The position numbers and the translations under genes were made by a program. From the NCBI GenBank assembly GCA_022340405.1, contig JAJDOA010000329.1, forward strand, positions 1 to 34,845: a stretch of DNA of 34,845 nucleotides, in the 5' to 3' direction. Under the pieces are notes generated by a model. The model was not told the DNA's origin. It made no database searches and saw only the letters and a list, made by a program, of their open reading frames with translations. The stretch is from Desulfobacteraceae bacterium. Its GTDB lineage: Bacteria > Desulfobacterota > Desulfobacteria > Desulfobacterales > JAJDOA01. The stretch's first letter is position 1. Each line of letters begins with the position of its first letter. Below are positions 6,337 to 30,746 of the stretch, one piece after another.

Positions 6337-6391
6337 GAACGGCTCCTTTCCCTATCGCCGTTTTGCGGAACGCACATCACGGATGCATCGG

Positions 6392-15982: not shown

Positions 15983-16057
15983 GGTCGGGTCGTTGGCGAA
16001 ACTCCCTTTGGTTCTGTGGCATTCGCGGGCCCATTTGGACCATTCTGCGCTTTCCAC

Positions 16058-16265: not shown

Positions 16266-17255
16266 TCAATCCGTGGCCGGACGTCGAATCCCGGTAATGA
16301 CCTCACGGGAGAAATCGAACAGGGTCTCGTTGCAGTTGCCGCTGCGAAGCCGGACACGGGAGCCGTCTTCCACCCGGCCCACCACGGCGGCGGTGACGTC
16401 ATGCTCGGAAAACAGCGACACCACATCGCCGGCGTGGTGGGGAGAAACGGAGAGAATGAAGCCGAAGCTCTGGAAACAGAGAATCCATTGCTCCAGCGGT
16501 AGCGCCGGCGGACAGGGCAGGGCGTCCACATCGATAACGGCACCCACCCCGGAGTTTTCGACGAGAATGGCGGCCGTGCCCAAAAGGCCGGCGTTGCTCA
16601 CGTCCTTGGCCGCAAAGGCCAGTTCGTACTCGGCAATCAGCGGCAGGGCCTCCAGTCGGTGCCGGAGGGCTTCGGGGCTTTTGCCGGAATTGGCGTCCCA
16701 ACTGACCACGGACCGGCACCCGGCGCGCCCCTCCAGGTCCACGGCCACGACGAGGTCGTCGCCGGGCGCGGCACGGTGACTGCGCAGCAGCTTTTTCGCC
16801 CGGCCGACAATGGTGACGCTCAACGCCGGCTGATCGTCGGGGGCGTCCGGGTGCAGATGCCCTCCCAACATGGGAACGCGGAGTTTGTCGCACCCCTTGG
16901 TGATGCCCTCCACGATGCGCCGGCGCTGCTCGGGATTTCCACTGGCCAGGACGTTGACCAGTCCGAGGGGCCGGCCGCCCATGGCGTATATGTCGTTGAC
17001 GGTCGCCATCACCGATGCCTTGCCGGCGGCATAGGGCTCGTTGACCAGCAAGGTGGTCTGGATGCCGTCCGCCGCGACCAGGAGATAGTCGTCCTCCCAG
17101 GGCAACACGGCTGCGTCGTCTCCCCAGTTGGGCAGCGGGTTGCCGAACCAGTGCGTCTCCCGCAGGGTGGAGAACACATCCTGGATGGGCTGTTTTCGCC
17201 GGAGGCCGGGATAGTCTCGGACCCGTTCCACGATCTGCTGCAGGGAATCCGTCAT
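16266..17255 (-). CDS. AIR-synthase (PurM/SelD/HypE-fold) protein, sll0787-like
   Basis: This 329-residue protein has the PurM/ThiL/SelD ATP-binding fold. GDDAAVLPWEDDYLLVAADG is the nucleotide/Mg loop, followed by ATVNDIYAMGGRPLGLVNVL, MLGGHLHPD and KDVSNAGLLGTAAI. It lacks the N-terminal Cys/Sec catalytic loop of selenophosphate synthase. Its best fit is the sll0787 branch found in cyanobacterial and actinobacterial 'Nit1' clusters, because the adjacent gene encodes the radical SAM and GNAT members of the same cluster. The ATG overlaps the preceding gene's stop (ATGA), with GAGGAG upstream. The two genes are therefore translationally coupled. The substrate is unknown; an ATP-dependent phosphorylation or amidine-forming step is expected from the fold. 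Confidence 0.87.
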   Translation of the reverse strand: MTDSLQQIVERVRDYPGLRRKQPIQDVFSTLRETHWFGNPLPNWGDDAAVLPWEDDYLLVAADGIQTTLLVNEPYAAGKASVMATVNDIYAMGGRPLGLVNVLASGNPEQRRRIVEGITKGCDKLRVPMLGGHLHPDAPDDQPALSVTIVGRAKKLLRSHRAAPGDDLVVAVDLEGRAGCRSVVSWDANSGKSPEALRHRLEALPLIAEYELAFAAKDVSNAGLLGTAAILVENSGVGAVIDVDALPCPPALPLEQWILCFQSFGFILSVSPHHAGDVVSLFSEHDVTAAVVGRVEDGSRVRLRSGNCNETLFDFSREVITGIRRPATD

Positions 17256-18829
17256 GGGCTCCTCGTTTCGTCTTCTGCGGTGCGGGACCGCGTTCCATCG
17301 TCGGGCACCCGGTCCAGATCGGCCTGCATCGGGCGGTGGGGATGCCCGCAGAGGATCTCCGTCGGGCCGATCGCCGTCCAGCCGAGCTTTTGGAAAAAAT
17401 GGACGTTTTTCTCTTGAATGTGAGCGGTAAAAACGGTGCATCCCTTTTTCTTGACCCGGCGCATGGCTTCCCGGACCAGTCCCGCTCCGATCCGATAGAT
17501 CCGTGCGTCGCGATCCACGGCCAGACGGCTGCCGATCCAGTGGCCGTTGCCTCTTTCCGGGTCGGGGAACACCCGCACGGTCCCCACCACACGGCCGTCC
17601 TGCTCGGCCACCAGGTGGATGCTGCAATCGTCGTGTTCGTCCCGGTCCGAGCCGGCGAACAGCCCCTGCTCCTCGACGAAGACCGCGTGCCGGATGGCGC
17701 GGGCTCTGTCCAGCTCCACTTCGTTTCGCGCCGTATGGATCCGGATCCGGGCCGCGGGCACTTCGTACAAGGCCAACGCCGAACAGGCACCGCAGCGCAC
17801 GCACCCTGCCCGGCAGTTTGTTGCGCTCAGCCCCTTGCGTCGCAGCACTTGGGCCACCGCCTCGTAGACGGCTTCCATGACATCGGGCTCGGGCGGCCGG
17901 TGGTTCTGCATCCAGGATCCGGGAACGGGGCGCAGCGGCACCACGTAGGGGTAGACACCCAGATCCGCCAGCACTTCGCTTCCGGAAACGATGGACTCCG
18001 GGGGTTCGCCGAGACCGGCGATCAAGAAGCTGCTCACCTGGTTGACGCCAAAAAGAGCGACGGCCCGACGCCACGCGGCTTCATATCGCTCCAGGCCGAG
18101 GGCCGCTTTCGCCGGCGCGACACGCTGCAGCGTCGGCCTATCGAAGCACTCGATGTGGATGCCCACCGTGTCCACCCCGGCTGCCAACAGCCGCTCCATG
18201 GCGTCCAGGTCCGGGGGCGGTGAAAACTGGACGTGAACCGGAAGGTCCGCCGCCGCTTTAACGGCGGCGGCGCAACGCGCCAGAGCATCGATTTCCGAGC
18301 CCGGAGGGTCGCCGACTCCGGTGGTGAGCACCGCGTGGCGGACACCGTCCAGTTCGGCGGCCCGACGCACCACCTCGCCAAGTTGCTCCGGGGTCTTTTG
18401 GGCGATGGTGGCGCCGCGCTCCAAGGAAACCTCGGTCGCGCAAAAGGCGCACCGCCGGGAGTGTCGCCAATGGAAACAGCGCTGCAGGACGGTGGTGGCG
18501 ATACAGTCTGTGCCGTGCAGCAGGGCGATCTTCCGGTAGCCGACGCCGTCGGCATCCGAAAACTCGTAAAACCGGGGATCGGGCACCGCGGATACGGAAG
18601 CGATCGGCTCGCCGTCCCGCAGCAGTTGCAGCCCGCCGCCGTCATCCTCGGCAAGGGAAAAGGGGGAGTCCGCCGTGTAGGCGGCACGGATGGGGACGTT
18701 GACCGCCGTCTCGCCGATCACCAGCGCCCTGCCCTCGGACGGTCCGGCACCCCCCTCCCGTCCCGTGAGGTTTCCGGGGACCCGCACCCCGAGGCTCTGT
18801 ATTTCGGTGACAATCCGCTTCACGTCCAT
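17252..18829 (-). CDS. Radical SAM (MSMEG_0568-like) - GNAT (MSMEG_0567-like) fusion protein
   Basis: This 525-residue protein has two parts. Residues about 1-365 form a radical SAM enzyme with an atypical cluster motif C118-x8-C127-x2-C130 (RCFHWRHSRRCAFCATEV), the downstream motif TTGVGDPPG and a C-terminal Cys-rich patch (CRAGCVRCGACSAL). These features are characteristic of the MSMEG_0568 family. Residues about 375-510 are a GNAT acetyltransferase of the MSMEG_0567/sll0786 type (RHAVFVEEQGLF, GRVVGTVRVFPD, FFQKLGW). In most genomes these are separate neighbouring genes; here they are fused. The start is the ATG at 18829 with AAGGTGA five bases upstream. It is coupled to the AIR-synthase-like gene. 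The usual nitrilase, flavoprotein and glycosyltransferase partners are not in the window. Confidence 0.88.
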   Translation of the reverse strand: MDVKRIVTEIQSLGVRVPGNLTGREGGAGPSEGRALVIGETAVNVPIRAAYTADSPFSLAEDDGGGLQLLRDGEPIASVSAVPDPRFYEFSDADGVGYRKIALLHGTDCIATTVLQRCFHWRHSRRCAFCATEVSLERGATIAQKTPEQLGEVVRRAAELDGVRHAVLTTGVGDPPGSEIDALARCAAAVKAAADLPVHVQFSPPPDLDAMERLLAAGVDTVGIHIECFDRPTLQRVAPAKAALGLERYEAAWRRAVALFGVNQVSSFLIAGLGEPPESIVSGSEVLADLGVYPYVVPLRPVPGSWMQNHRPPEPDVMEAVYEAVAQVLRRKGLSATNCRAGCVRCGACSALALYEVPAARIRIHTARNEVELDRARAIRHAVFVEEQGLFAGSDRDEHDDCSIHLVAEQDGRVVGTVRVFPDPERGNGHWIGSRLAVDRDARIYRIGAGLVREAMRRVKKKGCTVFTAHIQEKNVHFFQKLGWTAIGPTEILCGHPHRPMQADLDRVPDDGTRSRTAEDETRSP

Positions 18830-19061: not shown

Positions 19062-20654
19062 CTACTTCTTGTCCTCCACCGGCATGGAGGAGATGGTTCC
19101 GTCCCAGGTGTCCACGCACCCGGTGTCCTCGATGTCCTCCGGGAACCACGTGGCGGTCACATTTTTCTGCTCGGTATAAAACCGAACGCCGTCCATTCCC
19201 ATGACGTGCAAATCGCCGAAGAAGGAATTCTTGTGTCCGGTGAAACCGAAAATGCCCAGCGGCACGGGAATGCCGACGTTGATCCCCACCATTCCGGCGT
19301 GGGTCTTTTTGGAAAAGTTCCGGGCGTAGTAGCCGTTCTGGGTATAGATCACGGAGCCGTTGGCGAACCGGCTGTTGTTCATGATCTCCAGGCCCTCCTC
19401 GAATGTGTCGACCCGCTTGATGCATAGAACGGGCCCGAAGATCTCATCTCGGCCAACGGACATGTCCTCGGTGACGTGATCGAAAATGGAGGGGGCCAGG
19501 TAGAATCCGTTTTCGTATCCCTCCGGCACTTTGGGATTGCGGCCGTCTACGATGAGCTCGGCGCCTTCTTCGATACCCTTTTCGATCCAGTCCGTCACGA
19601 ACTTGAGGTGCCCGGCATTCATGATGGGCCCCATGCCGGTTTCCGGGTCGTAGGCCGGTCCGACATTCATCTCCGCGACGAATCTTTTCAGACAGGCGAT
19701 GAGCGGATCGGCGATGGCGTTTTCCACGACGATAACCGGACAGGCCATACAGCGGGCGCCGGCGCATCCGCAGTACGCATTGATGATGCCGCGCGCAGTG
19801 CGCTCCACCTTGCAGTCCCGCATGACCAGGGCATGGTTTTTCGCCTCGGTTAGCGCCTGAACCCGCTTGCCGTTGGCGGCGGCGGTGGCGTAGATGTGGC
19901 GGCCCACCTTGGTGGATCCGACGAAGGAAACCCCCTTGATATCCGGGTGCTTGAGAAGGATCTCAGCCTCGTTCCGGCTGGTGGTGACCAGGTTGATGAC
20001 GCCGTCGGGCAGCCCGGCCTCCTGCCACAGTTCGAGCAGCCGCATGGAGGACTGGGGAACGAAGCTGGCCGCCTTGAGCACGATGGTGTTTCCGGTGGCG
20101 ATGCACAGTGGGGTCATCCAGCCGTGGGGGATCATGGCGGGAAAGTTCCAGGGGGCAATCCCGGCAAATACGCCCAACGGCTCGTTGTACATGACCGTGT
20201 CGTAGTCGACGCTCACGTTCATTCCGGAGACGCCCTTCAACAGGTGTGGAATCCCGCAGGCGAATTCCACCACCTCGTTCACCTTGAGAACGTCGCCCAT
20301 GGATTCGCGCCAGTTCTTTCCTTCCTCCTTGCACAGCAGATAGGTGAGCTCCTCCAAATGTTTGTCCACCAGCGCCTTCATCCGGTACAAGACCTGGACG
20401 CGTTTGCTGGCCGGCGTCTCGGCCCAGGCCGGAAAGGCAGCGGCTGCCGCTTGGATGGCTTCGTTGACTTCGTCTTCGGTGCAGCAGGGCGCTTGAGCGA
20501 TGATCTCACCGGTGGAGGGATTGTAGCAGTCCATGTATTTTTCCGTCTTGGACTCCTTCCACTGACCACCGGCGCAGTATTTCAGCTTTTTCATTTCACT
20601 GTCTTCCTTTCCTATTTCAATGAAGTATCGGTCCTCTGATTTTTTGTCCAGCAT
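19062..20654 (-). CDS. MmsA-like (methylmalonate-semialdehyde type) aldehyde dehydrogenase
   Basis: This protein of about 530 residues is an aldehyde dehydrogenase of the CoA-acylating MmsA branch. It oxidises a semialdehyde to an acyl-CoA with NAD. Recognisable motifs are NEPLGVFAGIAPWNFPAMIP, GLPDGVINLV, GVSFVGSTKVGRHIY, the catalytic cysteine in AGARCMACPVIV, GRDEIFGPVLCI and the MmsA-type ending PLGIFGFTGHKNSFFGD. Two starts are possible. The ATG at 20654 has AAAGGAG nine bases upstream and is used here. The ATG at 20594 (MKKLKYCAGG) would give about 510 residues, nearer the family length. It is the last gene of the operon, after the ureohydrolase. The semialdehyde substrate is not determined by sequence alone. 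Confidence 0.9.
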   Translation of the reverse strand: MLDKKSEDRYFIEIGKEDSEMKKLKYCAGGQWKESKTEKYMDCYNPSTGEIIAQAPCCTEDEVNEAIQAAAAAFPAWAETPASKRVQVLYRMKALVDKHLEELTYLLCKEEGKNWRESMGDVLKVNEVVEFACGIPHLLKGVSGMNVSVDYDTVMYNEPLGVFAGIAPWNFPAMIPHGWMTPLCIATGNTIVLKAASFVPQSSMRLLELWQEAGLPDGVINLVTTSRNEAEILLKHPDIKGVSFVGSTKVGRHIYATAAANGKRVQALTEAKNHALVMRDCKVERTARGIINAYCGCAGARCMACPVIVVENAIADPLIACLKRFVAEMNVGPAYDPETGMGPIMNAGHLKFVTDWIEKGIEEGAELIVDGRNPKVPEGYENGFYLAPSIFDHVTEDMSVGRDEIFGPVLCIKRVDTFEEGLEIMNNSRFANGSVIYTQNGYYARNFSKKTHAGMVGINVGIPVPLGIFGFTGHKNSFFGDLHVMGMDGVRFYTEQKNVTATWFPEDIEDTGCVDTWDGTISSMPVEDKK

Positions 20655-20721: not shown

Positions 20722-21807
20722 TTACAGGCAGGGTCGATCGAATACGAGCCTGCCGCCCAGATTGGCGGCGATCTCGTAGGTACGGTCGACCTGGGAACCG
20801 TCATCCATGCCCGCCGTTCTCGGATTGATTTCGGTAATGTCCATCCCCACCAGCTGCAGGTCCCGGCCGCCGGCTGCAGCGATGCTGTCCGCAAGCCGAT
20901 AGATCTGCTTTTCGGACAATCCCTGCCAGTTCCGGAAGCGGACACCGTCCAGCGCGTTGCGCGCGCCGATATCCATGTCCACCGACAGGTACACGTAGGG
21001 TGTACGGATCTTCCGCAGCAGGCTGTTGACCTTTGCCGGTTTCAACTGGCACTCTTTCTTGGTGACAATGGTGGCGCCCTCCTTGCGCAGGCCCGCAAAC
21101 GCCGATACATAATCGGCGATCCGCCGGTCCTTGATGCGGAACACCTTTTTCTCCGGGTAGTCGCTGACACCCAGCAGGTAAAGATCCCGCGGATCCAAAA
21201 GGCCCTCGGCGACCATGTGGTGCAAAAAGGTACTGGCGTTGTAGCTCTCGGCACGATCGTGAAGAAAGGGGTCCGAGGCGTCGTACACGCTGCCGGGATT
21301 GGTATCGATGTCGTAGAAGATGGCCCCGGCAAGCCGCGACATGGGAATCGCATCCGTGTGGCTGTCCAAAACCACAAGCGATAATTTATCCCTCCCGTAA
21401 TGATCGGCCAGCGCACGATACACACCGCCGGTCAGCGAATGCTCCACCGTCACCAAAAACGGGAACCCCGGAAGAATTTCCGATCGCACGGCATCGGCGA
21501 CCCTGTCGGCGTATGTCTTGCAGCCGCCGCCGTCGATGAATGCGACCATGTCGTCCACAACCACGGAACCGCGTTCGGCCTCCGGCGGAATCGGGCGCAA
21601 CCAGCCGGGCACCTCGATGGACCCTCGAAACTCCCACTCGTTTTCCGGAACGCGCCGGGCCAGGCACTGCACCATACCCAGAAGCGGATCGTCGCCTCCC
21701 GGTTCCGGCGCGGGTTGGGCATGCTTCTCCTCAATGGCGTCATATTTCTCGTCGCAATCCAGAGGACATCCGAAAAAGACGACGGGTTGGTCGGCGGGCC
21801 GTATCAC
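20722..21807 (-). CDS. Ureohydrolase (arginase/agmatinase superfamily)
   Basis: This protein of about 361 residues has the manganese-site motifs of ureohydrolases. The His of TVEHSLTGG stands where GGDHS is usual, and LDSHTDA supplies D-x-H-x-D. SVDMD supplies the last two aspartates, and GMDITEINP completes the fold. The usual DPxxxPG after SxDxD is replaced by IGARNALDG, so it is a divergent member. Known members hydrolyse guanidino, amidino or formimino compounds to urea or formamide plus an amine. The start is uncertain: GTG at 21807 is used because upstream in-frame sequence is Arg-rich and unlike the family, but no strong ribosome site is seen. It lies between a corrinoid-type methyltransferase and an aldehyde dehydrogenase, suggesting a guanidino-type intermediate. 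Confidence 0.82.
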   Translation of the reverse strand: MIRPADQPVVFFGCPLDCDEKYDAIEEKHAQPAPEPGGDDPLLGMVQCLARRVPENEWEFRGSIEVPGWLRPIPPEAERGSVVVDDMVAFIDGGGCKTYADRVADAVRSEILPGFPFLVTVEHSLTGGVYRALADHYGRDKLSLVVLDSHTDAIPMSRLAGAIFYDIDTNPGSVYDASDPFLHDRAESYNASTFLHHMVAEGLLDPRDLYLLGVSDYPEKKVFRIKDRRIADYVSAFAGLRKEGATIVTKKECQLKPAKVNSLLRKIRTPYVYLSVDMDIGARNALDGVRFRNWQGLSEKQIYRLADSIAAAGGRDLQLVGMDITEINPRTAGMDDGSQVDRTYEIAANLGGRLVFDRPCL

Positions 21808-22013
21808 GATAGATCCATGCGTGCTCTGGGCAGGCTCACTCTGTTGATAACAAAAGCGGCGGCGGCGCACCGATATCCATGGTTTCCTGCGGCGACACGT
21901 CCGAACCTTCGGCCATTCGACCCGTACCGAACCCACCGCCGCGGCACCTCAGCATGCAGTACGCCCGCCTTCTCGGCCAAACACCGGTGCTCGCCGTCCC
22001 GGAGGGCGCGGGA

Positions 22014-23030
22014 TCAAGCGGCTTTGAAGTAGTCGTCCCGGGCCTTTCGGAGCTGTTGAACATTTTCCAAAGGGGAGCCGGGGGCAATGCCGCAGCCGGG
22101 GGTGAGGAAATGGCATCCATTTTCCAGGCTTGCGATGGCCTCTTTGTAGCAGTCTTCGGCAGTGCCCATGAAAAGCGTGGTTGCCGTGGCTACGTTGCCG
22201 AACACCTTCACGCCTTTGTCGTTGGCGACTTCCGCCGCCTTTTTCATGTCGGCCTTCTCTTCGATGGAAATGCCGGCCACGCCGGTCTCACACATCATCG
22301 GTATGATCAGGTCCGTGTTGGCGCAAATGTGCAGCACGATGGGACCTTTTACCTTTGCGACGATATCGGTCATCATGGGCTGAACAAATTTCTTCCAGGT
22401 CCTGGGGCTCATCAGGGCCGGCCCCGACGAGGGTTCGGCCAATACGTAGTAGTCGGCGCCTTGGTCGAAAGACCAGTTGACCACATCGATGATGACCTCC
22501 TTGGTGAGGTCGATCACCTGCTGGACCTTGTCCACCTCCTTGAAGGTCCACTTCATGAACTGCTCGGTTCCCACCAGATTGCAGGCGGCCGTCCACGCAC
22601 CTTCGGTTTCACCGAAAACGGCGACCTCGTCGCCGAGCTTTTCCTTCAGGATTCTGAACTGCTCCTTGTAAGCGGGGAATCGTCCCTTTTCGAAAATATT
22701 CTCCGGGTATTCCAAACCGTCCAGACTCTCGGAGAAGGGATGTTCCTTGACGAACTTCTGCAGGTCGATCTTGGGTTCCCCCAACGTGCAGCCCATCACC
22801 TCGCTCACCGCCGTGATGTCCCAGCCCATGGCCTTGCACCACTCGAATCCGGCCTCAACGTAGCCGAGTGCCAACGTGGCCATGGCCTGCGGGTCGGTGT
22901 CGGCCAAGGGGCGCTCGGCGCCCACTTTTTTCATGATGTCGACCACGCCGTAAGTGGTGGTGCAGCCAACGGGCGTGATGTCCGCCCCCTTGCCCTCCAA
23001 CTGGTTCATGAATCTCTCTTTGGGTGTCAT
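22014..23030 (-). CDS. Second UroD/MtaA-family methyltransferase
   Basis: This 338-residue protein is a second, clearly distinct member of the UroD-like methyltransferase family. It has the zinc pattern H234-x-C236 (VLHICANTD) and C313 (TPGCGIAPG). The ATG (MTPKERFMNQ) has the best ribosome site in the region, AAGGAGG six bases upstream. No corrinoid protein or MtrH-like gene adjoins it. It may therefore use the corrinoid protein at the left edge of the window or another in the genome. Its position directly after the Liv-type importer suggests that it demethylates the imported compound. Substrate and direction of transfer are inferred. Confidence 0.87.
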   Translation of the reverse strand: MTPKERFMNQLEGKGADITPVGCTTTYGVVDIMKKVGAERPLADTDPQAMATLALGYVEAGFEWCKAMGWDITAVSEVMGCTLGEPKIDLQKFVKEHPFSESLDGLEYPENIFEKGRFPAYKEQFRILKEKLGDEVAVFGETEGAWTAACNLVGTEQFMKWTFKEVDKVQQVIDLTKEVIIDVVNWSFDQGADYYVLAEPSSGPALMSPRTWKKFVQPMMTDIVAKVKGPIVLHICANTDLIIPMMCETGVAGISIEEKADMKKAAEVANDKGVKVFGNVATATTLFMGTAEDCYKEAIASLENGCHFLTPGCGIAPGSPLENVQQLRKARDDYFKAA

Positions 23031-23100: not shown

Positions 23101-23823
23101 TCAAACGGCCAAGTGATTCTGGATAATTTGAGGGTCTTCGCGCAATTCGCTGGTGGTGGCGATGCCCTCGATCCTTCCCTTGGTACCCATGAGGTAGTGC
23201 CGGGTGGCGACATTGAGGGCCATGCGGTAGTTTTGTTCGACCACCAACAGGGTGATGCCGGAAGCGACGCAGAAGTCCCGTACCACGTCGGTAACCATCT
23301 CAACCATCAGCGGTGAACGCCCCTGGGAAGGCTCGTCCAGAATAATGATTTTGGGGTTGCTTACCAGGGCACGCCCGATGGCCAGCATCTGCTGCTCTCC
23401 GCCGCTGAGTGTCGACCCGTCCTGCTTTCTGCGGTCCGATAGTATGGGAAATTGTCGGTATACTTTTTCCAGGTCCCAGGCGTCTTTTCCCCTACCGGGT
23501 CGGGCGGCCAGCAGGAGGTTCTCCTCTACGCTCAGACCGGGGAAAATGTGCCTCTCCGCCGGCACGTAAGCTACGCCCATTCGGGAAACCTTGTGGGCAG
23601 GCCATCGGGTGGTCTGGGTGCCGTCGATGTGAATTTTTCCTTCCCGCGGCGGGGTCAGCCCCATCACGGACCGGAGCGTGGTGGTCTTGCCCACCCCGTT
23701 TCGGCCGAGGATGGATACGGCCTCGTGCTCTTCGACATATAGGCTCAGCCCCTGGATGACGTAGCTTTCGCCGTAGTAGGTGTGGATGTCCTCGATGTCC
23801 AGGATCTTATTCTTCCTTGCCAA
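23101..23823 (-). CDS. livF: Branched-chain amino-acid-type ABC transporter ATPase (LivF)
   Basis: This 240-residue ABC ATPase has Walker A GRNGVGKTT, signature TLSGGEQQMLAIGRAL and Walker B IIILDEPSQG. The LivF type is shown by VAYVPAERHIFPGLSVEENLL. It pairs with LivG to power import through LivH/LivM. The start is TTG at 23823, supported by a strong GGGAGG six bases upstream. This makes it overlap the end of livG by 17 bases, so the two are translationally coupled. It is the last transporter gene before the UroD-like methyltransferase gene. The substrate is not readable; Liv-type systems also carry amides, urea and aromatic acids. Confidence 0.95.
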   Translation of the reverse strand: MARKNKILDIEDIHTYYGESYVIQGLSLYVEEHEAVSILGRNGVGKTTTLRSVMGLTPPREGKIHIDGTQTTRWPAHKVSRMGVAYVPAERHIFPGLSVEENLLLAARPGRGKDAWDLEKVYRQFPILSDRRKQDGSTLSGGEQQMLAIGRALVSNPKIIILDEPSQGRSPLMVEMVTDVVRDFCVASGITLLVVEQNYRMALNVATRHYLMGTKGRIEGIATTSELREDPQIIQNHLAV

Positions 23824-24553
23824 GATAGGCCTCCCTGACCATCTCGTTGTTCTGGATCTCTTCGGGTTTGCCCTCGGCGATGATGCTGCCGTAGTGCAGG
23901 ACGGAAATGACGTCGGAGATGCTCATGACGAGATCCATGTCGTGCTCCACCAGGACGACGGATATCTCGTCTGCAAGACCCCGGATCAGTTCAGAGATGT
24001 GCTGGGTTTCCGCCGGTGACATTCCGGCGGTGGGTTCGTCCAGGAACAGGATCTGCGGTTCTCCGGCCAGGGCAATGGCCACTTCCAGTACGCGCTGGTC
24101 TCCGTATGCCAGATTTTTGGCGGGCTGGTCAGCCAGGTCTTGTAGCTCAAGGCGCTCCAGGATGGCCCAGGTCTGCTCCGTCACCGCCTTCAGGCTTTTT
24201 CTGGCGGAAAAGACCCGCAGGGAGCCGCCGAGCCGGGCCTGCTTGGCGATCCGGACATTTTCGAAGACCGTGAGATTCTGGAAAATGCTGGTGATCTGAA
24301 AAGTGCGGCAGATCCCCATTTTGACGAGCTTGTGGGTGGGTTTGTTGGTGATGTCCCGTCCCCTGAACGTGACCTTTCCCGAACTGGCCGGAAGCCGGCC
24401 GGTGACCACGTTGATGAAGGTGGTCTTTCCCGCCCCGTTGGGTCCGATGATGGATCGCAGGCCGTTGGCCTCGATGTCGATGCAGACCTTGTTGGTGGCC
24501 ATCACGCCGCCGAAATGGCGGCACAAGTCTTCGGTGCAGAGAAATTCTTCCAC
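23807..24553 (-). CDS. livG: Branched-chain amino-acid-type ABC transporter ATPase (LivG)
   Basis: This 248-residue ABC ATPase of the LivG type has Walker A GPNGAGKTTFINVVTG, then MGICRTFQITSIFQNLTVFENV. Walker B is ILFLDEPTAGMSPAE, followed by VLVEHDMDLVM. The Q-loop and LivG-specific AGMSPAET are in place. The signature region is degenerate: YGDQRVLEVAIAL stands where LSxGxQ is usual, as is common in LivG. It lies ten bases downstream of livM and overlaps livF. Confidence 0.95.
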   Translation of the reverse strand: MEEFLCTEDLCRHFGGVMATNKVCIDIEANGLRSIIGPNGAGKTTFINVVTGRLPASSGKVTFRGRDITNKPTHKLVKMGICRTFQITSIFQNLTVFENVRIAKQARLGGSLRVFSARKSLKAVTEQTWAILERLELQDLADQPAKNLAYGDQRVLEVAIALAGEPQILFLDEPTAGMSPAETQHISELIRGLADEISVVLVEHDMDLVMSISDVISVLHYGSIIAEGKPEEIQNNEMVREAYLGKEE

Positions 24554-24563
24554 GGCTTGTTCT

Positions 24564-25568
24564 TCAACCCTTCCGTTTCAGGAATCGTTTCAGGTGGTCG
24601 CCGATGCCGACAAAACCGGTGGGTAGAAACAGCACCAGCAAAATGACCACGAGTCCGAGGTAGATCTCCCAGTGCTCGGTCATGGTGCTGATGTAGTCGG
24701 AAATGTAGATAAAGATCACAGCGCCGATCAGCGGGCCCCACAGCGTACCCATCCCACCGAGCAGCACCATCATCAACACGCCCGCCCCTGAAAATGCGCT
24801 CATGGTGGTGGGGCCGATGTAGCCCTTGTACAAGATGAAAAGAGCCCCGGCGATGCTGGCCAGCATACAGGCGAGCATCCACCCGTACAGTTTGTAGCGG
24901 CGGACATTGATGCCCACAAAAGCGGCACGGTCTTCGTTTTCGCGAATGGCCTCCAGGACGGAGCCGAACGGCGAATGGATGATCCGGCGGGTGAGCAGAT
25001 AGCAAAGGCCCACCACCACCACGGTGGTCAGGTACATGACCTTCGGGTCTCCGGTGGTTCCCAGCGACCATCCGAACAGATGGACCTCGGGCGTCGGCAC
25101 GCCCATCAGCCCGTCGTCCCCGCCGGTGAGGCTGTACCACTTCCACACCACGGTATGGAACATCATGCCGAAAGCCAGCGTGAGCAGGGCAAAAGCCAGC
25201 CCTCCGGTGCGCACCTGCACCCAGCCCACGGGAAGTGCGATCAGCGAGGTGGCCGCGATGCCCACCAGCGCCGCAAACCAGATGGAGGTGGGGGAGATGT
25301 GGATCAAAAACAGGCCGACGACATACGCACCGATGCCCAGGTAGGCATTGTGCATGAAGGACAGCAGCCCCGTGTAGCCCAGCAGCACGTCCAGGCTCAT
25401 GGCCAGCAGGCCGAAGATGAGCATTTCGTTGATCAGACTGATGTAAAAGCGATTGTCCCAGACAAAGGGCAGCATCACCAGTGCGACGGCAACCACCGCG
25501 ATCGCTGCGATGCTGGCGGGCGTGAGGTATTTGGTGTCCGCGGGTATCGAGGTGCGGTCGATCATCAT
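24564..25568 (-). CDS. livM: Branched-chain amino-acid-type ABC permease (LivM)
   Basis: This 334-residue integral membrane protein has about nine to ten hydrophobic segments. LivM signatures include LLGYTGLLSFMHNAYLGIGA, LEAIRENEDRAAFVGINVRR and MVLLGGMGTLWGPLIGAV (the EAA-like loop contacting the ATPases). It forms the membrane channel with LivH. Its ATG overlaps the livH stop by four bases (ATGA), showing translational coupling. Confidence 0.95.
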   Translation of the reverse strand: MMIDRTSIPADTKYLTPASIAAIAVVAVALVMLPFVWDNRFYISLINEMLIFGLLAMSLDVLLGYTGLLSFMHNAYLGIGAYVVGLFLIHISPTSIWFAALVGIAATSLIALPVGWVQVRTGGLAFALLTLAFGMMFHTVVWKWYSLTGGDDGLMGVPTPEVHLFGWSLGTTGDPKVMYLTTVVVVGLCYLLTRRIIHSPFGSVLEAIRENEDRAAFVGINVRRYKLYGWMLACMLASIAGALFILYKGYIGPTTMSAFSGAGVLMMVLLGGMGTLWGPLIGAVIFIYISDYISTMTEHWEIYLGLVVILLVLFLPTGFVGIGDHLKRFLKRKG

Positions 25569-26440
25569 TCAAACTTTCCTTCCCCCAGGATGCCGCGGGG
25601 CTTGATGGCCAGAATGATTGCCATGAGCATGTAGACGATCACCATGGCCAGATCGGTGATGAAAAATTCGGCCAGGGTCTGAACGGCTCCGATCAGCAGA
25701 GCGGCGATCACGGCTCCCCGCAGGCTGCCCAGACCGCCAATGACGATGACCACAAAGGAGCTGATCAGCATCTCGTGCCCCATGATCGGATCGATGGTGG
25801 TCAGCGGCCCGGCGATGATCCCCGCGATACCGGCCAGAACCGAGCCGAGCACGAACGCACCGATGTGCACGTACTTCATGTTGACGCCGAGACACGAGAC
25901 CATCTCCGGTATGGTGCTCGAGGCCCGCAGCGTCATGCCGGTCTTCGTGCGGCTCAGAAACAGCATGAGACCGGCCATCACCACCGCAGTGATCAAAAGA
26001 GTCATCAACCGGAACACCGGGTAATGGGTCCCCAGAATCGGAAGGGTCTCCCGCATGAAGGCCGGAAGGTCGATGAAGCGCGGCTCGTTGCCCCAGGTGT
26101 ATTTGATCAAGCCGTCGATGAAAAACATTAAACCGTAAGTGAGAATCAGCGTGTAGACGATGGACCGGCTTCGCATCGGGGCGATGACGGTCCTCTCGAT
26201 GAGCAGACCCGCCACCCCGACCAGCAGGGGGGCAAGCAGGAGTGCAACGAAAAAGTTCAGGCCCGTAGAAACCAGCGTATAGCCGCTGTACGCTCCGAGC
26301 GCGTATAGCGAACCGTGAGCCAGGTTCATGACGCGGCTCAGCCCGTAGATGATGTTCAGCCCGATGGCGACAATGAGGAAGACGCCGCCCAGGACCAGGC
26401 TGTTGAGTGTAATGTCAATGGCCGTGCTGACTCCACCCAT
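25565..26440 (-). CDS. livH: Branched-chain amino-acid-type ABC permease (LivH)
   Basis: This 291-residue membrane permease has LivH signatures: LVLGGVFLIVAIGLNIIYGL, RVMNLAHGSLYALGAY, RASSTIPEMVSCLGVN and VVIVIGGLGSLRGAVIAALL. It partners LivM. It is separated from the binding-protein gene upstream by 196 bases that contain a stable hairpin, so its expression is probably set lower than that of the binding protein. Confidence 0.95.
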   Translation of the reverse strand: MGGVSTAIDITLNSLVLGGVFLIVAIGLNIIYGLSRVMNLAHGSLYALGAYSGYTLVSTGLNFFVALLLAPLLVGVAGLLIERTVIAPMRSRSIVYTLILTYGLMFFIDGLIKYTWGNEPRFIDLPAFMRETLPILGTHYPVFRLMTLLITAVVMAGLMLFLSRTKTGMTLRASSTIPEMVSCLGVNMKYVHIGAFVLGSVLAGIAGIIAGPLTTIDPIMGHEMLISSFVVIVIGGLGSLRGAVIAALLIGAVQTLAEFFITDLAMVIVYMLMAIILAIKPRGILGEGKFE

Positions 26441-26487
26441 AGCGATTGTTTCCGTCCGTCGAGGATGCAGGGAAAAACGAAAACTGC

Positions 26488-26524
26488 CGGGCTGCGAGAA
26501 TCGTTTTCACAATCTCGCAGCCCG
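26488..26524 (-). terminator. Intra-operon hairpin (partial terminator) between livK and livH
   Basis: A perfect 12-bp stem (26488-26499 with 26513-26524) has a 13-base loop. On the minus strand it is followed by a T-rich stretch (GCAGTTTTCGTTTTT). It lies inside the 196-base livK-livH gap. Its form fits an intrinsic terminator or processing site that lets the binding protein be made in excess over the membrane components. No other gene is seen in the gap. Confidence 0.65.
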
Positions 26525-26636
26525 CTATCGTCTGTTTCCTTGTTTCGGATAAATGCGGCAGAAGCCGCAATCGGGTCTCGCCGCCGGAAACGCTATCCCC
26601 GGCGAGCCGAAGTGACGCTTCTTCCTGCCTGTGAAA

Positions 26637-27830
26637 TCACTCGGGCGGTCCGAGCTCTTCCGCCGGGAAGGTTTGCAGCACCTTCATGACGACCTTTGCG
26701 CCGAATGGATTGTCCGGTGCCGCCATGGTCTCGGTGAGCACCGCACTGTTGCGCATGCAGTTGTCCTTGGCCGAGATGCGAACGGTTCCGTAGGGGCCGT
26801 CGTAGCTGATGCCGCGCAGCGCATCGGCGATGGCCTTGGGGTCCGTGCTGCCGGCCTTCTCAATCCCCTTGAACAGGTTCATGGCGCCCACATAGCTGTG
26901 TGCGGCGGCGTCGGAGGGGATGGTCTTGTATTTTTTCCAGAAGGCCATTTCCCATTTGTCGGACTCCGGCGTGTTGACATCCCAGGACCAGTCGGAAGCT
27001 CCGAAGATGCCGTAGCAGGCCTCGCCGCCGGCTTCCAGCTCCAGCGGTCCCGGGGCCGCGGCGGACACCATCTTCACCCCCGCCTGCTGAAGGCCGAAAT
27101 CGTACGCCTGCTTGGCGAACACGGGGATCACGTTGGTAATGAAGGCCATGTAGACGCCGTCCACACCGGAAGCCTTGATCTTGCTGATGTAGGAAGACCA
27201 GTCTTTTGTCTTGATGGGGGCCTTGTCAAAGTCCTCGTTGTAGATCTTGATGCCGTTTTTCTTGGCCAGTTCGATAAAACGCTGGCCGGCATCGTGGCCC
27301 CAGGCATAATCGTGCACGATCACATAGTAGGTGCGGTCCTTCAGGTCGGGGCGCGCCATTATCCCCTTGACGTTTCCGACCGCGGTCTGGTCGTTGGCCA
27401 ACTGTCCGCTGCGGAACACCATCGGATTGAGGCCGTAAAAAGCGGTGGTCATGACGTGCGTGCTCAAAAACGGCACGTTGAGCTTGTCGATGTTTTTCGC
27501 CAGCGCAAGGCCCACGCCGCTGGAAAAGACGCCGATCAGCGCAACGGCACCGTCCTTGTAGACCAGCTTTTCCGCCTTGGTCACGGCAATGGGGGGCTTG
27601 ACCTGGGTGTCTTCGACGATCAGCTCGATGGGCCGACCCAGCAGCGTACCCTTTTCCTCGGCCGCCATCTCGATGCCCATCTTCATCTCCAGCCCGCCCT
27701 GGGCGACGATGCCGGTGAGCGGAACAATAACCCCGATTTTAACGGGATCGGCGGCTGCCGCCTGCTGGGGAACGAACATGGTGAACGAGAGAAACATACA
27801 CAACGACACGATTATCAACCTCTTCATCAT
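26637..27830 (-). CDS. livK: Liv-type periplasmic substrate-binding protein (LivK-like)
   Basis: This protein of about 397 residues begins MMKRLIIVSLCMFLSF, a Sec signal peptide. Cleavage is likely after PQQAAA, and the mature protein starts DPVKIGVIVPLTG, typical of type I periplasmic binding proteins. The start is set by GGAGG five bases before the first of two ATG codons, so a longer reading upstream is excluded. It captures the transported solute for the LivHMGF importer encoded downstream. It follows the Fe-S oxidoreductase subunit gene by about 90 bases. The ligand class cannot be deduced from sequence. Confidence 0.94.
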   Translation of the reverse strand: MMKRLIIVSLCMFLSFTMFVPQQAAAADPVKIGVIVPLTGIVAQGGLEMKMGIEMAAEEKGTLLGRPIELIVEDTQVKPPIAVTKAEKLVYKDGAVALIGVFSSGVGLALAKNIDKLNVPFLSTHVMTTAFYGLNPMVFRSGQLANDQTAVGNVKGIMARPDLKDRTYYVIVHDYAWGHDAGQRFIELAKKNGIKIYNEDFDKAPIKTKDWSSYISKIKASGVDGVYMAFITNVIPVFAKQAYDFGLQQAGVKMVSAAAPGPLELEAGGEACYGIFGASDWSWDVNTPESDKWEMAFWKKYKTIPSDAAAHSYVGAMNLFKGIEKAGSTDPKAIADALRGISYDGPYGTVRISAKDNCMRNSAVLTETMAAPDNPFGAKVVMKVLQTFPAEELGPPE

Positions 27831-27923: not shown

Positions 27924-29240
27924 TCAGGCAAGCGCCAAATCCAATATTTCGGTCAGATCGTGCAGTGTCATGGTGCTGCCGATCCGTTTCGATCCTTCGT
28001 TGAGGTTGTAATGGCAAAAGGGACAGATGGAGATCATCTTTTCCGCGCCGGACTCCATCCCTTCCTGGATGCGCAACGAGGCATTTTTCGATGCCCAGTC
28101 GCCGAATCCGGTCATGACGCCGCCGCCGCCGCCGCAGCAGAAAGAATTGCCCCGAATCCGTTCCATCTCAACCAACTCAACACCCGGAATCGCTTTGAGG
28201 ATCTCCCTGGGAATGTCGTAGAGGCACTGGCTTTCGTCCACATCCACGTAAGCCCCCTCCCAGAGCTGACTGCCATCTTCGTCCACCCGGAACTTGTTCA
28301 GATGGCGGCCGGTGTGACAGGGATCGTGATAGGTCACCTTCCAGGGCACCTCGTTTTGGAACTTCAGCTTGCCGTCTTTCATGAGGCGGTGCAGAAACTG
28401 CACGGTGTGCATGACCTCGATGCCGTCCATGAGCTTGTCGTATTCCGAAGAAAGGATATAGTCTTTCTTGATGGCCCGGTAGCATCCGGCACAGGAACTG
28501 ACGATGGTCTTGACCCCTTTTTCCTCGTGGAGCTTTTGGAAGGTTTCCAAATTGTTCGTGGCCACACGTTTGAACTCTTCGGCGTCGCCGACCCTCATGG
28601 CCGTTGAGCCGCAGCAGACCTCGCTTTCCCCGAGAATGCCGAAATCGATCCCCAGCTTCTGGAAAATCCGCGCCGTGGCCTGGGGAACGGCCATGGCCGT
28701 TTTGTTGAAGGCCCCGGTGCACCCCACGTAAAACAGCACCTCGGCGGGCTCCTTGTTGAGGTTCTTAATGGGGGTTTTCGCCTTTTTGAAGGGTCGCGTC
28801 CAGTCCAGGCGCATGCGCCGAGGGCCCTGGTACGGGTTGTTATAATTTTTCATGGATTTGACCAGATTCTTCTGCAAGGGCAAAGGACCGTAACCTTGAT
28901 CCACCGCTTCCCGGCGCATGGCCTCGATGACCTCCGGGATGTGGGGCTTGTAGTCGACCTGGCATTGGTTTTGGCAGCCGCCGCAGACGGTGCACTTGTA
29001 GATGGCCTCGAGAAAGTCGGGATCGTCAAAGGTCAGCGACCCGTCGCTGATACCGCGGGCAAAAGCCGCCTTGCCCTTGGATGAATAGTAGCCCTCGAAA
29101 CCGTATTCGGTGCCCGCCGGGCAAATCGGCCGCGCGAACGGAGGTGGACCGAAGTCATAGGCGACGCGGCAGGTACCGCAGGCCGTGCACCTCCAGAAGT
29201 AGTGCTCCAGATCTTTCAGCGAAGGGATGTTCCATTCCAT
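27924..29240 (-). CDS. CCG-domain Fe-S oxidoreductase subunit (GlcF/HdrD-like)
   Basis: This 438-residue protein has two N-terminal [4Fe-4S] ferredoxin-type motifs: CTACGTC with later CP, and CTVCGGCQNQC. Two CCG domains follow (EVCCGSTAMR with SSCAGCYRA, and NSFCCGGGGGVMTG with CPFCHYN). These are the cluster-binding modules of glycolate oxidase GlcF, lactate oxidase and heterodisulfide reductase HdrD. The ATG has GGAGG seven bases upstream. It adjoins a GlcD-like FAD subunit, with which it probably forms a membrane-peripheral dehydrogenase. That enzyme would pass electrons from a 2-hydroxy acid (or similar) to quinone, Hdr or ETF systems. The electron acceptor is inferred. Confidence 0.92.
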   Translation of the reverse strand: MEWNIPSLKDLEHYFWRCTACGTCRVAYDFGPPPFARPICPAGTEYGFEGYYSSKGKAAFARGISDGSLTFDDPDFLEAIYKCTVCGGCQNQCQVDYKPHIPEVIEAMRREAVDQGYGPLPLQKNLVKSMKNYNNPYQGPRRMRLDWTRPFKKAKTPIKNLNKEPAEVLFYVGCTGAFNKTAMAVPQATARIFQKLGIDFGILGESEVCCGSTAMRVGDAEEFKRVATNNLETFQKLHEEKGVKTIVSSCAGCYRAIKKDYILSSEYDKLMDGIEVMHTVQFLHRLMKDGKLKFQNEVPWKVTYHDPCHTGRHLNKFRVDEDGSQLWEGAYVDVDESQCLYDIPREILKAIPGVELVEMERIRGNSFCCGGGGGVMTGFGDWASKNASLRIQEGMESGAEKMISICPFCHYNLNEGSKRIGSTMTLHDLTEILDLALA

Positions 29241-29300: not shown

Positions 29301-30746
29301 CTATATCGCCAGCTTGCCCGGGTTCATGATGTCGTTGGGATCCAGCATCTGTTTGATCCGGCGCAGCAGCATCAAATATCCCGGATGCGCCCGCTGGTTG
29401 ATCTCCTGGCCAAAATCCACCGGAGGTTTATAGGGAATTCCTCCGTTGTCAAGATCCACTTTGAGGCACTCGACGATGGCTTTTCGCGCGTTCTCCGTCT
29501 CCTCTTCGCTCTGTTTGTTGAACGGGATCATGGCTCGAAGCATGCCGTAGTGCACACCGCGATACATGCTCATGCGCACAGACGGAGACAGATTGTGACC
29601 GATCAGGATCTTTTTCCACTCGTTGTAGACGGGGGCCCACTTGTTGGCCGGCGTGAAGGTTCCCGGCCACGATATCCCCGCACCGGCCATCTTGCAGTAG
29701 TTCTTCGTCGACCCCACAATCTGGCTGGGCAGCTGTGTGCGCGCCCGCAGCGCCTCTTCCGGATACTCCGTCACCTTCAGCGAAGTGCCTTTTTTCTTCT
29801 CCTCTTCCACCACCATCTGCCAGATCTCTTCACGGGCCTCCTTCTCCTTTTCGGTGAAGGAGTTCGTGTTGGCAAAGGAGAACCACTCCGGCGCGTCGTC
29901 GGGCTTTTCGCGGTACGGATAGGGGATCGGCACCTGGGCGAGCCACCAGCTTACGGCCGTCAGATCGTCGCAGATCTCGTACCAGGCCAGATTGTGCATG
30001 TAGGAGTACATGTCCTCGGCGTTGTCGCAGCTCACCGTGAACACCTTCAGCACCGGCGGGATTGGATGCACCGTGAGCCCCAGCTTGGTCACCACGCCCG
30101 TGGAGCCCAGCCACCCCTTGAACAGGCCGTCCATCTTCGGCAGCGGCAGCGTCGAGTGCCACGCGTCCTCCACGATGGCGCACGATCCCACGCGCACCAG
30201 CTCCCCGGTGGGCAGCACCACTTCCATGGAAGTGATCTCCTGGCTGTTGAGACCGTAGCGCGCGTTCAAACCCCCGATGCCGTGGGAGATCGCACACGAG
30301 CTCACCGAGGCCGACGGCGGACCCACCGGCCAGCCGAAACGCAGGTTGTGTTCGTGCAGCGCCTCGGCCAGCTGACCGTGGCTCACACCGGGCTCGATCA
30401 CCGCGTAGTGGCTGTCCGGATCGATCTTGATGATCTGGTTCATCCGCTTCAGGTCCAGCAAAATACCGCCCCGCTCGGGGATGCAAAGCCCGCCGATGTT
30501 GGTCCCCGCCGTGTAGGGAACCACCGGGATTTTCTCCTGGTTGGCAAAGCGCATGATCTGCTGCACCTGCTCCACGTTCTCGGCCATCACCACGTAGTCG
30601 GGAAGCTTGGGCTTTACGAAAGACATGTCGTAGGAATAGGCGTAGCGCACGTGTTTGGCCGCCGTGGCATTCTTCTCCCCCACAATGGCCTGCAGCTCCT
30701 TGACCACCCTGAGGACTTCCTTTGACACTTCAGGCATTTCCGTCAT
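29301..30746 (-). CDS. GlcD-like FAD-binding oxidoreductase
   Basis: This 481-residue flavoprotein of the PCMH/vanillyl-alcohol-oxidase superfamily has the FAD-binding region PVVPYTAGTNIGGLCIPERG, then AVIEPGVSHGQLAE and HGIGGLNARYGLNS. It ends MLDPNDIMNPGKLAI, a standard GlcD-type tail. Such proteins oxidise D-2-hydroxy acids or related alcohols and use an Fe-S partner. The partner is the CCG-domain protein 60 bases downstream. The start at MTEMPEVSKE is fixed by GGAGG eight bases upstream. It is the first metabolic gene after the FadR-type regulator. The VAO superfamily also includes aryl ether and phenol oxidases, so an aromatic substrate is possible. Confidence 0.92.
   Translation of the reverse strand: MTEMPEVSKEVLRVVKELQAIVGEKNATAAKHVRYAYSYDMSFVKPKLPDYVVMAENVEQVQQIMRFANQEKIPVVPYTAGTNIGGLCIPERGGILLDLKRMNQIIKIDPDSHYAVIEPGVSHGQLAEALHEHNLRFGWPVGPPSASVSSCAISHGIGGLNARYGLNSQEITSMEVVLPTGELVRVGSCAIVEDAWHSTLPLPKMDGLFKGWLGSTGVVTKLGLTVHPIPPVLKVFTVSCDNAEDMYSYMHNLAWYEICDDLTAVSWWLAQVPIPYPYREKPDDAPEWFSFANTNSFTEKEKEAREEIWQMVVEEEKKKGTSLKVTEYPEEALRARTQLPSQIVGSTKNYCKMAGAGISWPGTFTPANKWAPVYNEWKKILIGHNLSPSVRMSMYRGVHYGMLRAMIPFNKQSEEETENARKAIVECLKVDLDNGGIPYKPPVDFGQEINQRAHPGYLMLLRRIKQMLDPNDIMNPGKLAI

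What the first reader, a model, noticed from the sequence alone, without database searches (positions are those of the whole stretch)
16266..18829. Radical SAM-GNAT fusion with AIR synthase: a 'Nit1' core without the nitrilase
MSMEG_0568-type radical SAM, MSMEG_0567/sll0786-type GNAT and sll0787-type AIR synthase proteins are known as neighbours in an uncharacterised nitrilase-linked cluster of actinobacteria and cyanobacteria. Here the first two are one polypeptide and the third is coupled by an ATGA overlap, in an anaerobe-like genome with no nitrilase in the window. The fusion supports successive action on one intermediate.
Basis: partly seen in the sequence, partly recalled or inferred. 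Interest (0 to 1): 0.62.

Follow-up and report, generated by a model that had tools for sequence, protein, structure and literature searches.

The report
Fused enzyme trio without its nitrilase
An enzyme trio known only from bacteria that feed on cyanide turns up here, partly fused into one protein, inside a conserved anaerobic gene island that has no nitrilase, which suggests that the trio has a nitrile-independent job and gives a way to find out what it is.

Summary
On the minus strand, 17252-18829 encodes one 525-aa radical SAM (TIGR04043) plus GNAT (TIGR04045) polypeptide, overlapped ATGA by an AIR-synthase-like gene (16266-17255). It is no frameshift: the fusion is in 22 of 395 genomes of the phylum, in eight families. 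No Nit1C gene that I tested (nitrilase, NitB, NitG) reaches its family cut-off in 37 carrier genomes, the window's own included. The trio holds together: 38 genomes have the rSAM, 37 the AIRS, 35 both.

The larger find is the context. The window is part of a conserved two-operon island: AOR-like, BPL_N, cytochromes, HdrB/TfrB-like Fe-S protein, sulfonate-type ABC importer, flavin reductase, rSAM-GNAT, AIRS; and, divergently, GntR, aldehyde dehydrogenase, GlcD/GlcF, LivKHMGF, corrinoid methyltransferases. Unfused rSAMs of the family occur in 48 of 294 archaeal genomes, often overlapping an aldehyde-sulfurtransferase-type gene. I propose that the trio makes a small, possibly sulfur-containing molecule or cofactor for the island; the chemistry is inferred. 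Anaerobic enzymes differ from Nit1C in a C109 cysteine and CX8CX2C instead of CX9CX2C. Substrate and product are unknown.

The parts
17252..18829 (-). radical SAM-GNAT fusion, 525 aa (start ATG 18829; in-frame GTG 18859 possible)
17759..18829 (-). radical SAM part (residues 1-357): C118-x8-C127-x2-C130, C109, and C-terminal C343-x2-C346-x2-C349
   Evidence: TIGR04043 392.3 bits; conserved columns in 71 sequences
17297..17746 (-). GNAT part (about residues 362-511)
   Evidence: TIGR04045 127.3 bits, PF00583 53.1 bits
16266..17255 (-). AIR-synthase-like protein, 329 aa, ATGA overlap with the fusion
   Evidence: PF00586/PF02769 over cut-off; TIGR04049 297.5 and TIGR03267 290.8, both under cut-off
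19062..20594 (-). aldehyde dehydrogenase, MMSDH subfamily, upstream of the fusion (start uncertain)
   Evidence: TIGR01722 536.2 bits, cut-off 448.5; recurs in the island
20722..21936 (-). arginase-family protein (start uncertain)
   Evidence: PF00491 69.5 bits; homologues at the same place in G053 and G196
22014..23030 (-). UroD-superfamily methyltransferase, MtaA/CmuA family (UroD2)
   Evidence: NF004889 288.5 bits (cut-off 244), TIGR01463 248.7 (cut-off 235.4)
23101..27830 (-). branched-chain/amide-type ABC importer: LivF 23101-23823, LivG 23807-24553, LivM 24564-25568, LivH 25565-26440, LivK 26637-27830
27924..29240 (-). GlcF/HdrB/TfrB-like Fe-S protein
   Evidence: NF004898 171.5 bits, under its cut-off 385; 65-75% identical homologues next to GlcD in other islands
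29301..30746 (-). GlcD-like FAD-linked oxidase
   Evidence: PF01565/PF02913; 76-84% identity in 10 other carrier genomes
30833..31552 (-). GntR/FadR-type regulator between the divergent operons
32274..33590 (+). short AOR-like protein (AFOR_N domain, 438 aa), first gene of the divergent operon
   Evidence: PF02730 153.9 bits; next to BPL_N in 14 other genomes
33735..34845 (+). BPL_N-domain protein, cut by the contig end (start uncertain); goes on in contig C21 (L165) with cytochromes and an HdrB/TfrB-like protein
   Evidence: PF09825 46.2 bits
1..519 (-). methyltransferase corrinoid protein, cut by the window edge
   Evidence: PF02607/PF02310; TIGR02370 168.9 bits
588..1640 (-). UroD-superfamily methyltransferase (UroD1)
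   Evidence: NF004889 243.3 bits, just under its cut-off 244
1699..2652 (-). MtrH/MtgA-like methyltransferase (probably to tetrahydrofolate)
   Evidence: NF002142 274.7 bits, under its cut-off 287

Best explanation
The rSAM-GNAT fusion and the AIRS form a self-contained, nitrilase-independent biosynthetic module that serves a conserved anaerobic catabolic and respiratory island. Shown by sequence: one polypeptide; tight co-occurrence with AIRS and with the island; absence of the tested Nit1C genes; a conserved variant rSAM cluster motif and a second C-terminal three-cysteine motif. Inferred mechanism: the rSAM part cleaves SAM at a [4Fe-4S] cluster on C118/C127/C130, makes a substrate radical and alters it (possibly inserting sulfur from an auxiliary cluster held by C343/C346/C349, with C109 as a possible fourth ligand in anaerobes); the fused GNAT acylates an amine of the intermediate without releasing it; the AIRS, of the ThiL/SelD/HypE/PurM fold family, activates the product with ATP. 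The product would be a small molecule, possibly a sulfur-containing cofactor, used by the island's redox or methyl-transfer enzymes. In Nit1C the same module would have been recruited beside a nitrilase.
For: Co-occurrence over 395 genomes: rSAM 38, AIRS 37, both 35, Fisher p about 4e-44 (relatedness not corrected). BPL_N, an island signature, in 34 of 38 rSAM genomes and 0 of 20 genomes without it. AIRS directly downstream in 17 of 22 fused loci; SsuB-type ATPase upstream in 14 of 22. Island synteny in other genomes. Nitrilase, NitB and NitG over cut-off in 0 of 37 carriers each. C118/C127/C130 in 70 or 71 and C343/C346/C349 in 69 of 71 sequences. L062/L063, which lost the second triad, also lack AIRS, BPL_N and the ABC genes. 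Sulfur-relay neighbours in some loci: MoaD-like and ThiF in L062/L063; cysteine desulfurase, ThiF and TusA-like (by eye) in L068; DsrE in five loci; a DUF39-type gene overlapping the rSAM in archaea. Nearest solved structures for the rSAM part are ThiH and BioB (weak, E 3e-4), for the AIRS ThiL (5e-20).
Against: No product, substrate or reaction is shown. The structure model is too poor (mean pLDDT 50.6, two sequences) to place the cysteines. In the window the trio sits in the GntR-side operon, not in the ABC/HdrB operon as elsewhere, so its tie to that operon is looser here. Archaea keep the rSAM without GNAT, and without AIRS next to it. Sulfur-relay neighbours differ from lineage to lineage and are absent from most loci. 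COG1900 (PF01837) is no commoner in carriers (31 of 38) than in non-carriers (18 of 20). The island's genes could equally mean that the trio acts on the imported substrate. The window's GNAT loop reads RIYRIGAG where most relatives read RxxGAG, so its acyl-CoA binding is uncertain.
Confidence: 0.45

Rival explanations
1. The trio is catabolic: it acts directly on the compound brought in by the SsuABC- or Liv-type importer (radical rearrangement, acylation, ATP activation), upstream of the corrinoid demethylation, aldehyde dehydrogenase and GlcD/F steps.
For: It is in one island with two importers, GlcD/F, an aldehyde dehydrogenase, AOR-like and UroD/MtrH/corrinoid genes; in the window it follows the aldehyde dehydrogenase in the same direction, with 232 bases between and no terminator-like site.
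Against: Catabolic sets usually change with the substrate, whereas this trio is kept in lineages whose fetched stretches show no GntR-side genes (most of L056-L076), and the rSAM lives in archaea with none of these genes near.
Confidence: 0.25
2. It is a remnant or variant of Nit1C and still serves cyanide or nitrile use, with a distant nitrilase elsewhere in the genome or with external nitrile hydrolysis.
For: rSAM and GNAT pass the Nit1C family cut-offs. Nine of 37 carriers have a nitrilase-like protein scoring 207-434 bits to TIGR04048. DsrE-like genes beside the rSAM in five loci belong to the fold family of NitB, and the two scanned score 19-30 bits to it.
Against: None of the 37 reaches the nitrilase, NitB or NitG cut-off; the nine nitrilase-like genes lie on other contigs than the trio; the window's own genome has only 32 bits; anaerobic rSAMs carry C109 and CX8CX2C, nine of nine Nit1C ones V or T and CX9CX2C.
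Confidence: 0.12
3. The fusion has no chemical meaning: a chance gene fusion tolerated in one lineage, with the GNAT domain decaying.
For: The window's GNAT loop is unusual; L058 is interrupted; L057 and L064 sit inside the fused clade with separate genes.
Against: The fusion is kept in 22 genomes of eight families; invariant GNAT columns such as R380, E387, Q388, D395, R435-A437 and W484 persist in all 21 aligned fusions.
Confidence: 0.08

Closest known systems
Nit1C cluster (nitBCDEFGH; NitD rSAM, NitE GNAT, NitF AIRS)
   Same: rSAM and GNAT pass the same family cut-offs (TIGR04043, TIGR04045); same order rSAM-GNAT-AIRS with tight coupling; C-terminal AGCxxCxxC kept.
   Different: No nitrilase, NitB or NitG; rSAM and GNAT fused; AIRS under the family cut-off; CX8CX2C with C109 against CX9CX2C with V/T; embedded in a respiratory and methyl-transfer island.
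Methanogenesis marker 2 (TIGR03267) AIRS proteins
   Same: Four of five other AIRS proteins scanned score 265-317 bits, three of them above their score to the sll0787 model; mean identity 37.1% against 34.5% to Nit1C AIRS.
   Different: All under the cut-off of 365 bits; in the tree the island AIRS proteins, L057 apart, are a clade of their own.
Archaeal TIGR04043 rSAMs coupled to DUF39/COG1900-CBS genes
   Same: About 47-52% identity to the window, family cut-off passed in the two tested (L128 378.5, L119 360.3 bits), all diagnostic cysteines.
   Different: No GNAT domain and no AIRS beside them; partner is an aldehyde-sulfurtransferase-type protein.
Corrinoid demethylation systems of the UroD superfamily (MtoB/OdmB/MtvB/CdmB with their tetrahydrofolate methyltransferases)
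   Same: The island has UroD-family, MtrH-like, corrinoid and activating proteins.
   Different: The passages that I read name no rSAM-GNAT or AIRS with those systems (PMC13222342, PMC10418091); substrate here unknown.

Membership tests
Nit1C | rSAM of the MSMEG_0568 family (TIGR04043) | tested here: met
   392.3 bits, cut-off 303.7
Nit1C | GNAT of the MSMEG_0567 family (TIGR04045) | tested here: met
   127.3 bits, cut-off 68.45
Nit1C | AIRS of the sll0787 family (TIGR04049) | tested here: not met
   297.5 bits, cut-off 321.3
Nit1C | Nit1-clade nitrilase (TIGR04048) | tested here: not met
   own genome best 32.3 bits, cut-off 502.6; 0 of 37 carriers over it; seven CN_hydrolase matches in the own genome
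Nit1C | NitB (TIGR04044) | tested here: not met
   0 of 37 over cut-off; one weak match, G077
Nit1C | NitG (TIGR04042) | tested here: not met
   0 of 37 with any match at E 0.001
Nit1C | NitH flavoprotein (MSMEG_0569) | not tested
Radical SAM superfamily | three-cysteine [4Fe-4S] motif | tested here: met
   PF04055 43.4 bits, cut-off 29.5; motif is the variant C-x8-C-x2-C, not C-x3-C-x2-C
Radical SAM superfamily | reductive SAM cleavage | not testable with these tools
   needs anaerobic enzyme assay
GNAT | GNAT fold with acetyl-CoA loop (R/Q-x-x-G-x-G/A; motif recalled) | tested here: inconclusive
   PF00583 53.1 bits; most relatives read RxxGAG, the window RIYRIGAG
AIRS/PurM-like ATP enzymes | both AIRS domains and conserved acidic/GGH/KD motifs | tested here: met
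   PF00586, PF02769; K21, D47, D88, G131-H133, K217-D218 invariant in 22 sequences, three of Nit1C included
Methanogenesis marker 2 | TIGR03267 cut-off 365 bits | tested here: not met
   290.8 bits
MtaA/CmuA methyltransferases (window 22014-23030) | NF004889 and TIGR01463 cut-offs | tested here: met
   288.5 over 244; 248.7 over 235.4; methyl acceptor not testable

The most novel reading that the evidence does not exclude
The trio makes a coenzyme-M- or coenzyme-B-like thiol cofactor in bacteria. The island would import sulfonates, carry methyl groups through UroD/MtaA-type transferases to that thiol, and regenerate it through the HdrB/TfrB-like and cytochrome complex, as methanogens do with CoM and CoB; the archaeal rSAM beside COG1900-type genes and the marker-2-like AIRS would be the archaeal side of the same chemistry, and Nit1C a late aerobic offshoot. 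The evidence is circumstantial: UroD2 is an MtaA/CmuA-family member, HdrB-like proteins are common in anaerobes, SsuA-type binding proteins are broad, the MtrH-like protein points to tetrahydrofolate as acceptor instead, and COG1900 shows no link to the trio in bacteria.
Probability: 0.1. Interest if true: 0.9.

Novelty: new variant of a known kind. Interest (0 to 1): 0.6.

Why it matters
What NitD, NitE and NitF do in cyanide-assimilating bacteria is, in the papers that I saw, unexplained: only the nitrilase has a reaction. Finding the same three proteins, two of them fused, kept together without a nitrilase in anaerobes, and the rSAM in archaea, suggests that their shared reaction is not tied to nitrile hydrolysis. 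It gives a comparative handle (island genes, residue C109, cluster spacing, the second cysteine triad) and a single-polypeptide enzyme to assay. If the product is a cofactor, a whole anaerobic demethylation and respiration island may depend on it.

Tried and rejected

Idea 'COG1900 goes with the trio in bacteria': rejected, 31 of 38 carriers against 18 of 20 non-carriers. Idea 'marker 2 AIRS goes with the archaeal rSAM': marker 2 is common anyway (206 of 294 genomes), so it says little. Idea 'window fusion is a frameshift': rejected. Fusion history: on a 70-tip rSAM tree fused/split needs 4 changes against 14 or more in 200 shuffles, but deep supports are low, so one old fusion with splits and several fusions both remain possible (9 of 79 sequences, distant or truncated, dropped).

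Counts: carriers are genomes with an rSAM match of about 260 bits or more, or two adjoining pieces (G274); weaker matches, mostly at 28-32% identity (paralogues), were left out. The Nit1C searches took 37 of the 38 carriers; G274 was left out. Cysteine counts use 71 of 79 sequences. Gene calls in other loci are my own mechanical ones and can miss small genes or starts. Papers: PMC11049912, PMC1199592, PMC12068725, PMC10418091, PMC3226654, PMC13222342, PMC11138216 read as passages; PMC9585515 and PMC8630106 as search listing only; the primary Nit1C papers (Estepa 2012, Jones 2018) only as cited in PMC11049912. Searches that found no description of the fusion or island: (open-licence papers only).
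Full report
WHAT IS THERE. The window is one contig (C160) of a 4.0-Mb, 375-contig, 93.7% complete genome. On the minus strand, 17252-18829 encodes one polypeptide with an MSMEG_0568-family radical SAM part and an MSMEG_0567/Sll0786-family GNAT part, both over their curated cut-offs. The next gene, an AIR-synthase-like protein, starts inside its stop codon (ATGA). About ten residues link the rSAM end (AGCxxCxxCSAL) to the GNAT start. The AIRS sits between two families: 297.5 bits to sll0787 (cut-off 321.3) and 290.8 to methanogenesis marker 2 (cut-off 365).

NOT AN ARTEFACT. A search of 395 genomes of the phylum found fusions in 22 genomes, the window's included, of eight families, at 36-55% identity. 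Another set has rSAM and GNAT as neighbouring genes. One fusion (L058) has an in-frame stop.

NOT NIT1C. Of 37 carrier genomes, none reaches the cut-off for the Nit1 nitrilase, NitB or NitG. MSMEG_0569 was not tested. Results the other way: nine carriers have nitrilase-like proteins of 207-434 bits (below 502.6), all on other contigs than the trio, and DsrE-like genes stand beside the rSAM in five loci, two of which were scanned and score weakly to NitB. Nit1C is not uncharacterised: it is tied to cyanide assimilation in Pseudomonas (PMC11049912, passages; cluster first described in PMC1199592, passages).

THE TRIO HOLDS TOGETHER. rSAM in 38, AIRS in 37, both in 35 of 395 genomes (p about 4e-44, without correction for relatedness). 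The exceptions: G113 (76% complete), G282 and G321 have rSAM only; G001 and G374 AIRS only. AIRS is directly downstream in 17 of 22 fused loci, one of them cut by a contig end.

THE ISLAND. A BPL_N-domain protein found near the trio is present in 34 of 38 carriers and 0 of 20 non-carriers. In the window it lies at 33735-34845(+), cut by the contig end; contig C21 (L165) carries its remaining part, then a multihaem cytochrome, two cytochrome b proteins and an HdrB/TfrB-like Fe-S protein. A short AOR-like gene precedes BPL_N here and in 14 other genomes. Elsewhere the same operon goes on with SsuA, SsuC and SsuB-type ABC genes, an FMN reductase, the fusion and the AIRS (SsuB in 14 of 22 fused loci); whether G000 has the ABC genes cannot be seen, since C21 ends. 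The divergent operon begins with GntR and carries an MMSDH-type aldehyde dehydrogenase, GlcD (76-84% identity in 10 other carriers), GlcF and LivKHMGF; MtrH-like, UroD-like, corrinoid and activating genes stand together in seven genomes. The window shows the same genes; here the trio stands at the end of the GntR-side operon, 232 bases after the aldehyde dehydrogenase.

ARCHAEA. In the phylum of an Alkanophagales MAG (L010), 48 of 294 genomes have an rSAM match of 300 bits or more, none fused to GNAT. Most are closer to the window (47-52%) than the Nit1C rSAMs are (42-44%), and the two tested pass the TIGR04043 cut-off. In 18 of 34 archaeal loci a DUF39/COG1900-CBS gene is nearby, in 15 directly upstream with overlapping ends; the one scanned matches methanogenesis marker 16 under cut-off (163.3 of 363.95). 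COG1900 proteins put sulfur on aldehydes in homocysteine and coenzyme M synthesis (PMC12068725, passages). More distant rSAMs (L146-L148, L150) sit beside marker 11, in L146 near coenzyme M genes.

RESIDUES. C118, C127 and C130 are in 70 or 71 of 71 sequences; C343, C346 and C349 in 69 of 71, the two exceptions (L062, L063) also lacking AIRS and island genes. C109 is in 66 of 67 anaerobe and archaeal sequences and in none of nine Nit1C sequences from plasmids, which have V or T and one residue more between the first two cluster cysteines. A [4Fe-5S] auxiliary cluster in biotin synthases of anaerobes is a precedent for sulfur insertion (PMC11138216, passage); it is analogy only.

HOW IT PROBABLY WORKS. 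Shown: composition, linkage, conservation. Inferred: rSAM makes a substrate radical and remodels it, perhaps with sulfur; GNAT, on the same chain, acylates; AIRS activates with ATP. The island would use the product. I cannot say what the product is. The rival that the trio works on the imported substrate is open. The boldest reading, a CoM/CoB-like thiol in bacteria, is not excluded but has little direct support, and the COG1900 test was negative.

VERDICT. Observation confirmed; the 'Nit1 core' reading only in part. A new variant of a known trio, in an island that I found described in none of the searched papers.

Noticed in passing
L120, L121, L123-L126, L128, L131, L132, L135, L136, L139, L141, L142, L144: In archaea of the Alkanophagales phylum the TIGR04043 rSAM overlaps a DUF39/COG1900-CBS gene, an unexplained pairing of a radical SAM enzyme with an aldehyde-sulfurtransferase-type protein.
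   Followed up: partly
L062 7754-10433, L063 9080-10615: Degenerate fusions that lost the C-terminal cysteine triad and the GGAGP motif, now followed by MoaD-like and ThiF genes; no AIRS in those genomes. Possibly a changed function.
   Followed up: partly
window 15026-16057: TSCPD-domain protein (TIGR03905) with a C-terminal extension of about 230 residues that matched no Pfam or NCBIfam model, downstream of the AIRS.
   Followed up: no
L046 14097-14813, L057 9634-10434, L048 9582-10208, L041 1271-1819: Conserved 180-270-aa protein near the rSAM or ABC genes; the two scanned (L046, L057) match nothing in Pfam or NCBIfam.
   Followed up: no
window 32274-33590: AOR-like protein of only 438 aa with a single recognised AFOR_N domain, conserved in the island; short for this family (family length recalled).
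   Followed up: partly
L046 14911-18470, L047 13722-17179, L069-L071: The HdrB-like protein is longer here (600-680 aa) with, by eye, an N-terminal cytochrome c stretch, and stands with Rieske-like and cytochrome b-like genes: perhaps a bc complex joined to an HdrB-like protein.
   Followed up: no
L053 4918-7571: Beside this fusion, by eye, a GcvH-like protein, a lipoate-ligase-like protein and a LipS-like radical SAM protein on the other strand.
   Followed up: no
window 17440-17510: The acyl-CoA loop of the window's GNAT (RIYRIGAG) is shifted by two residues against most relatives (RxxGAG).
   Followed up: no
window 5731-6919: Two adjacent V4R-domain-like proteins (one under the Pfam cut-off) near a PAS histidine kinase and response regulator (kinase by eye).
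   Followed up: no
G000:C236:4930-6129: The own genome has a second, divergent HcyBio (COG1900) protein, 311.6 bits.
   Followed up: no
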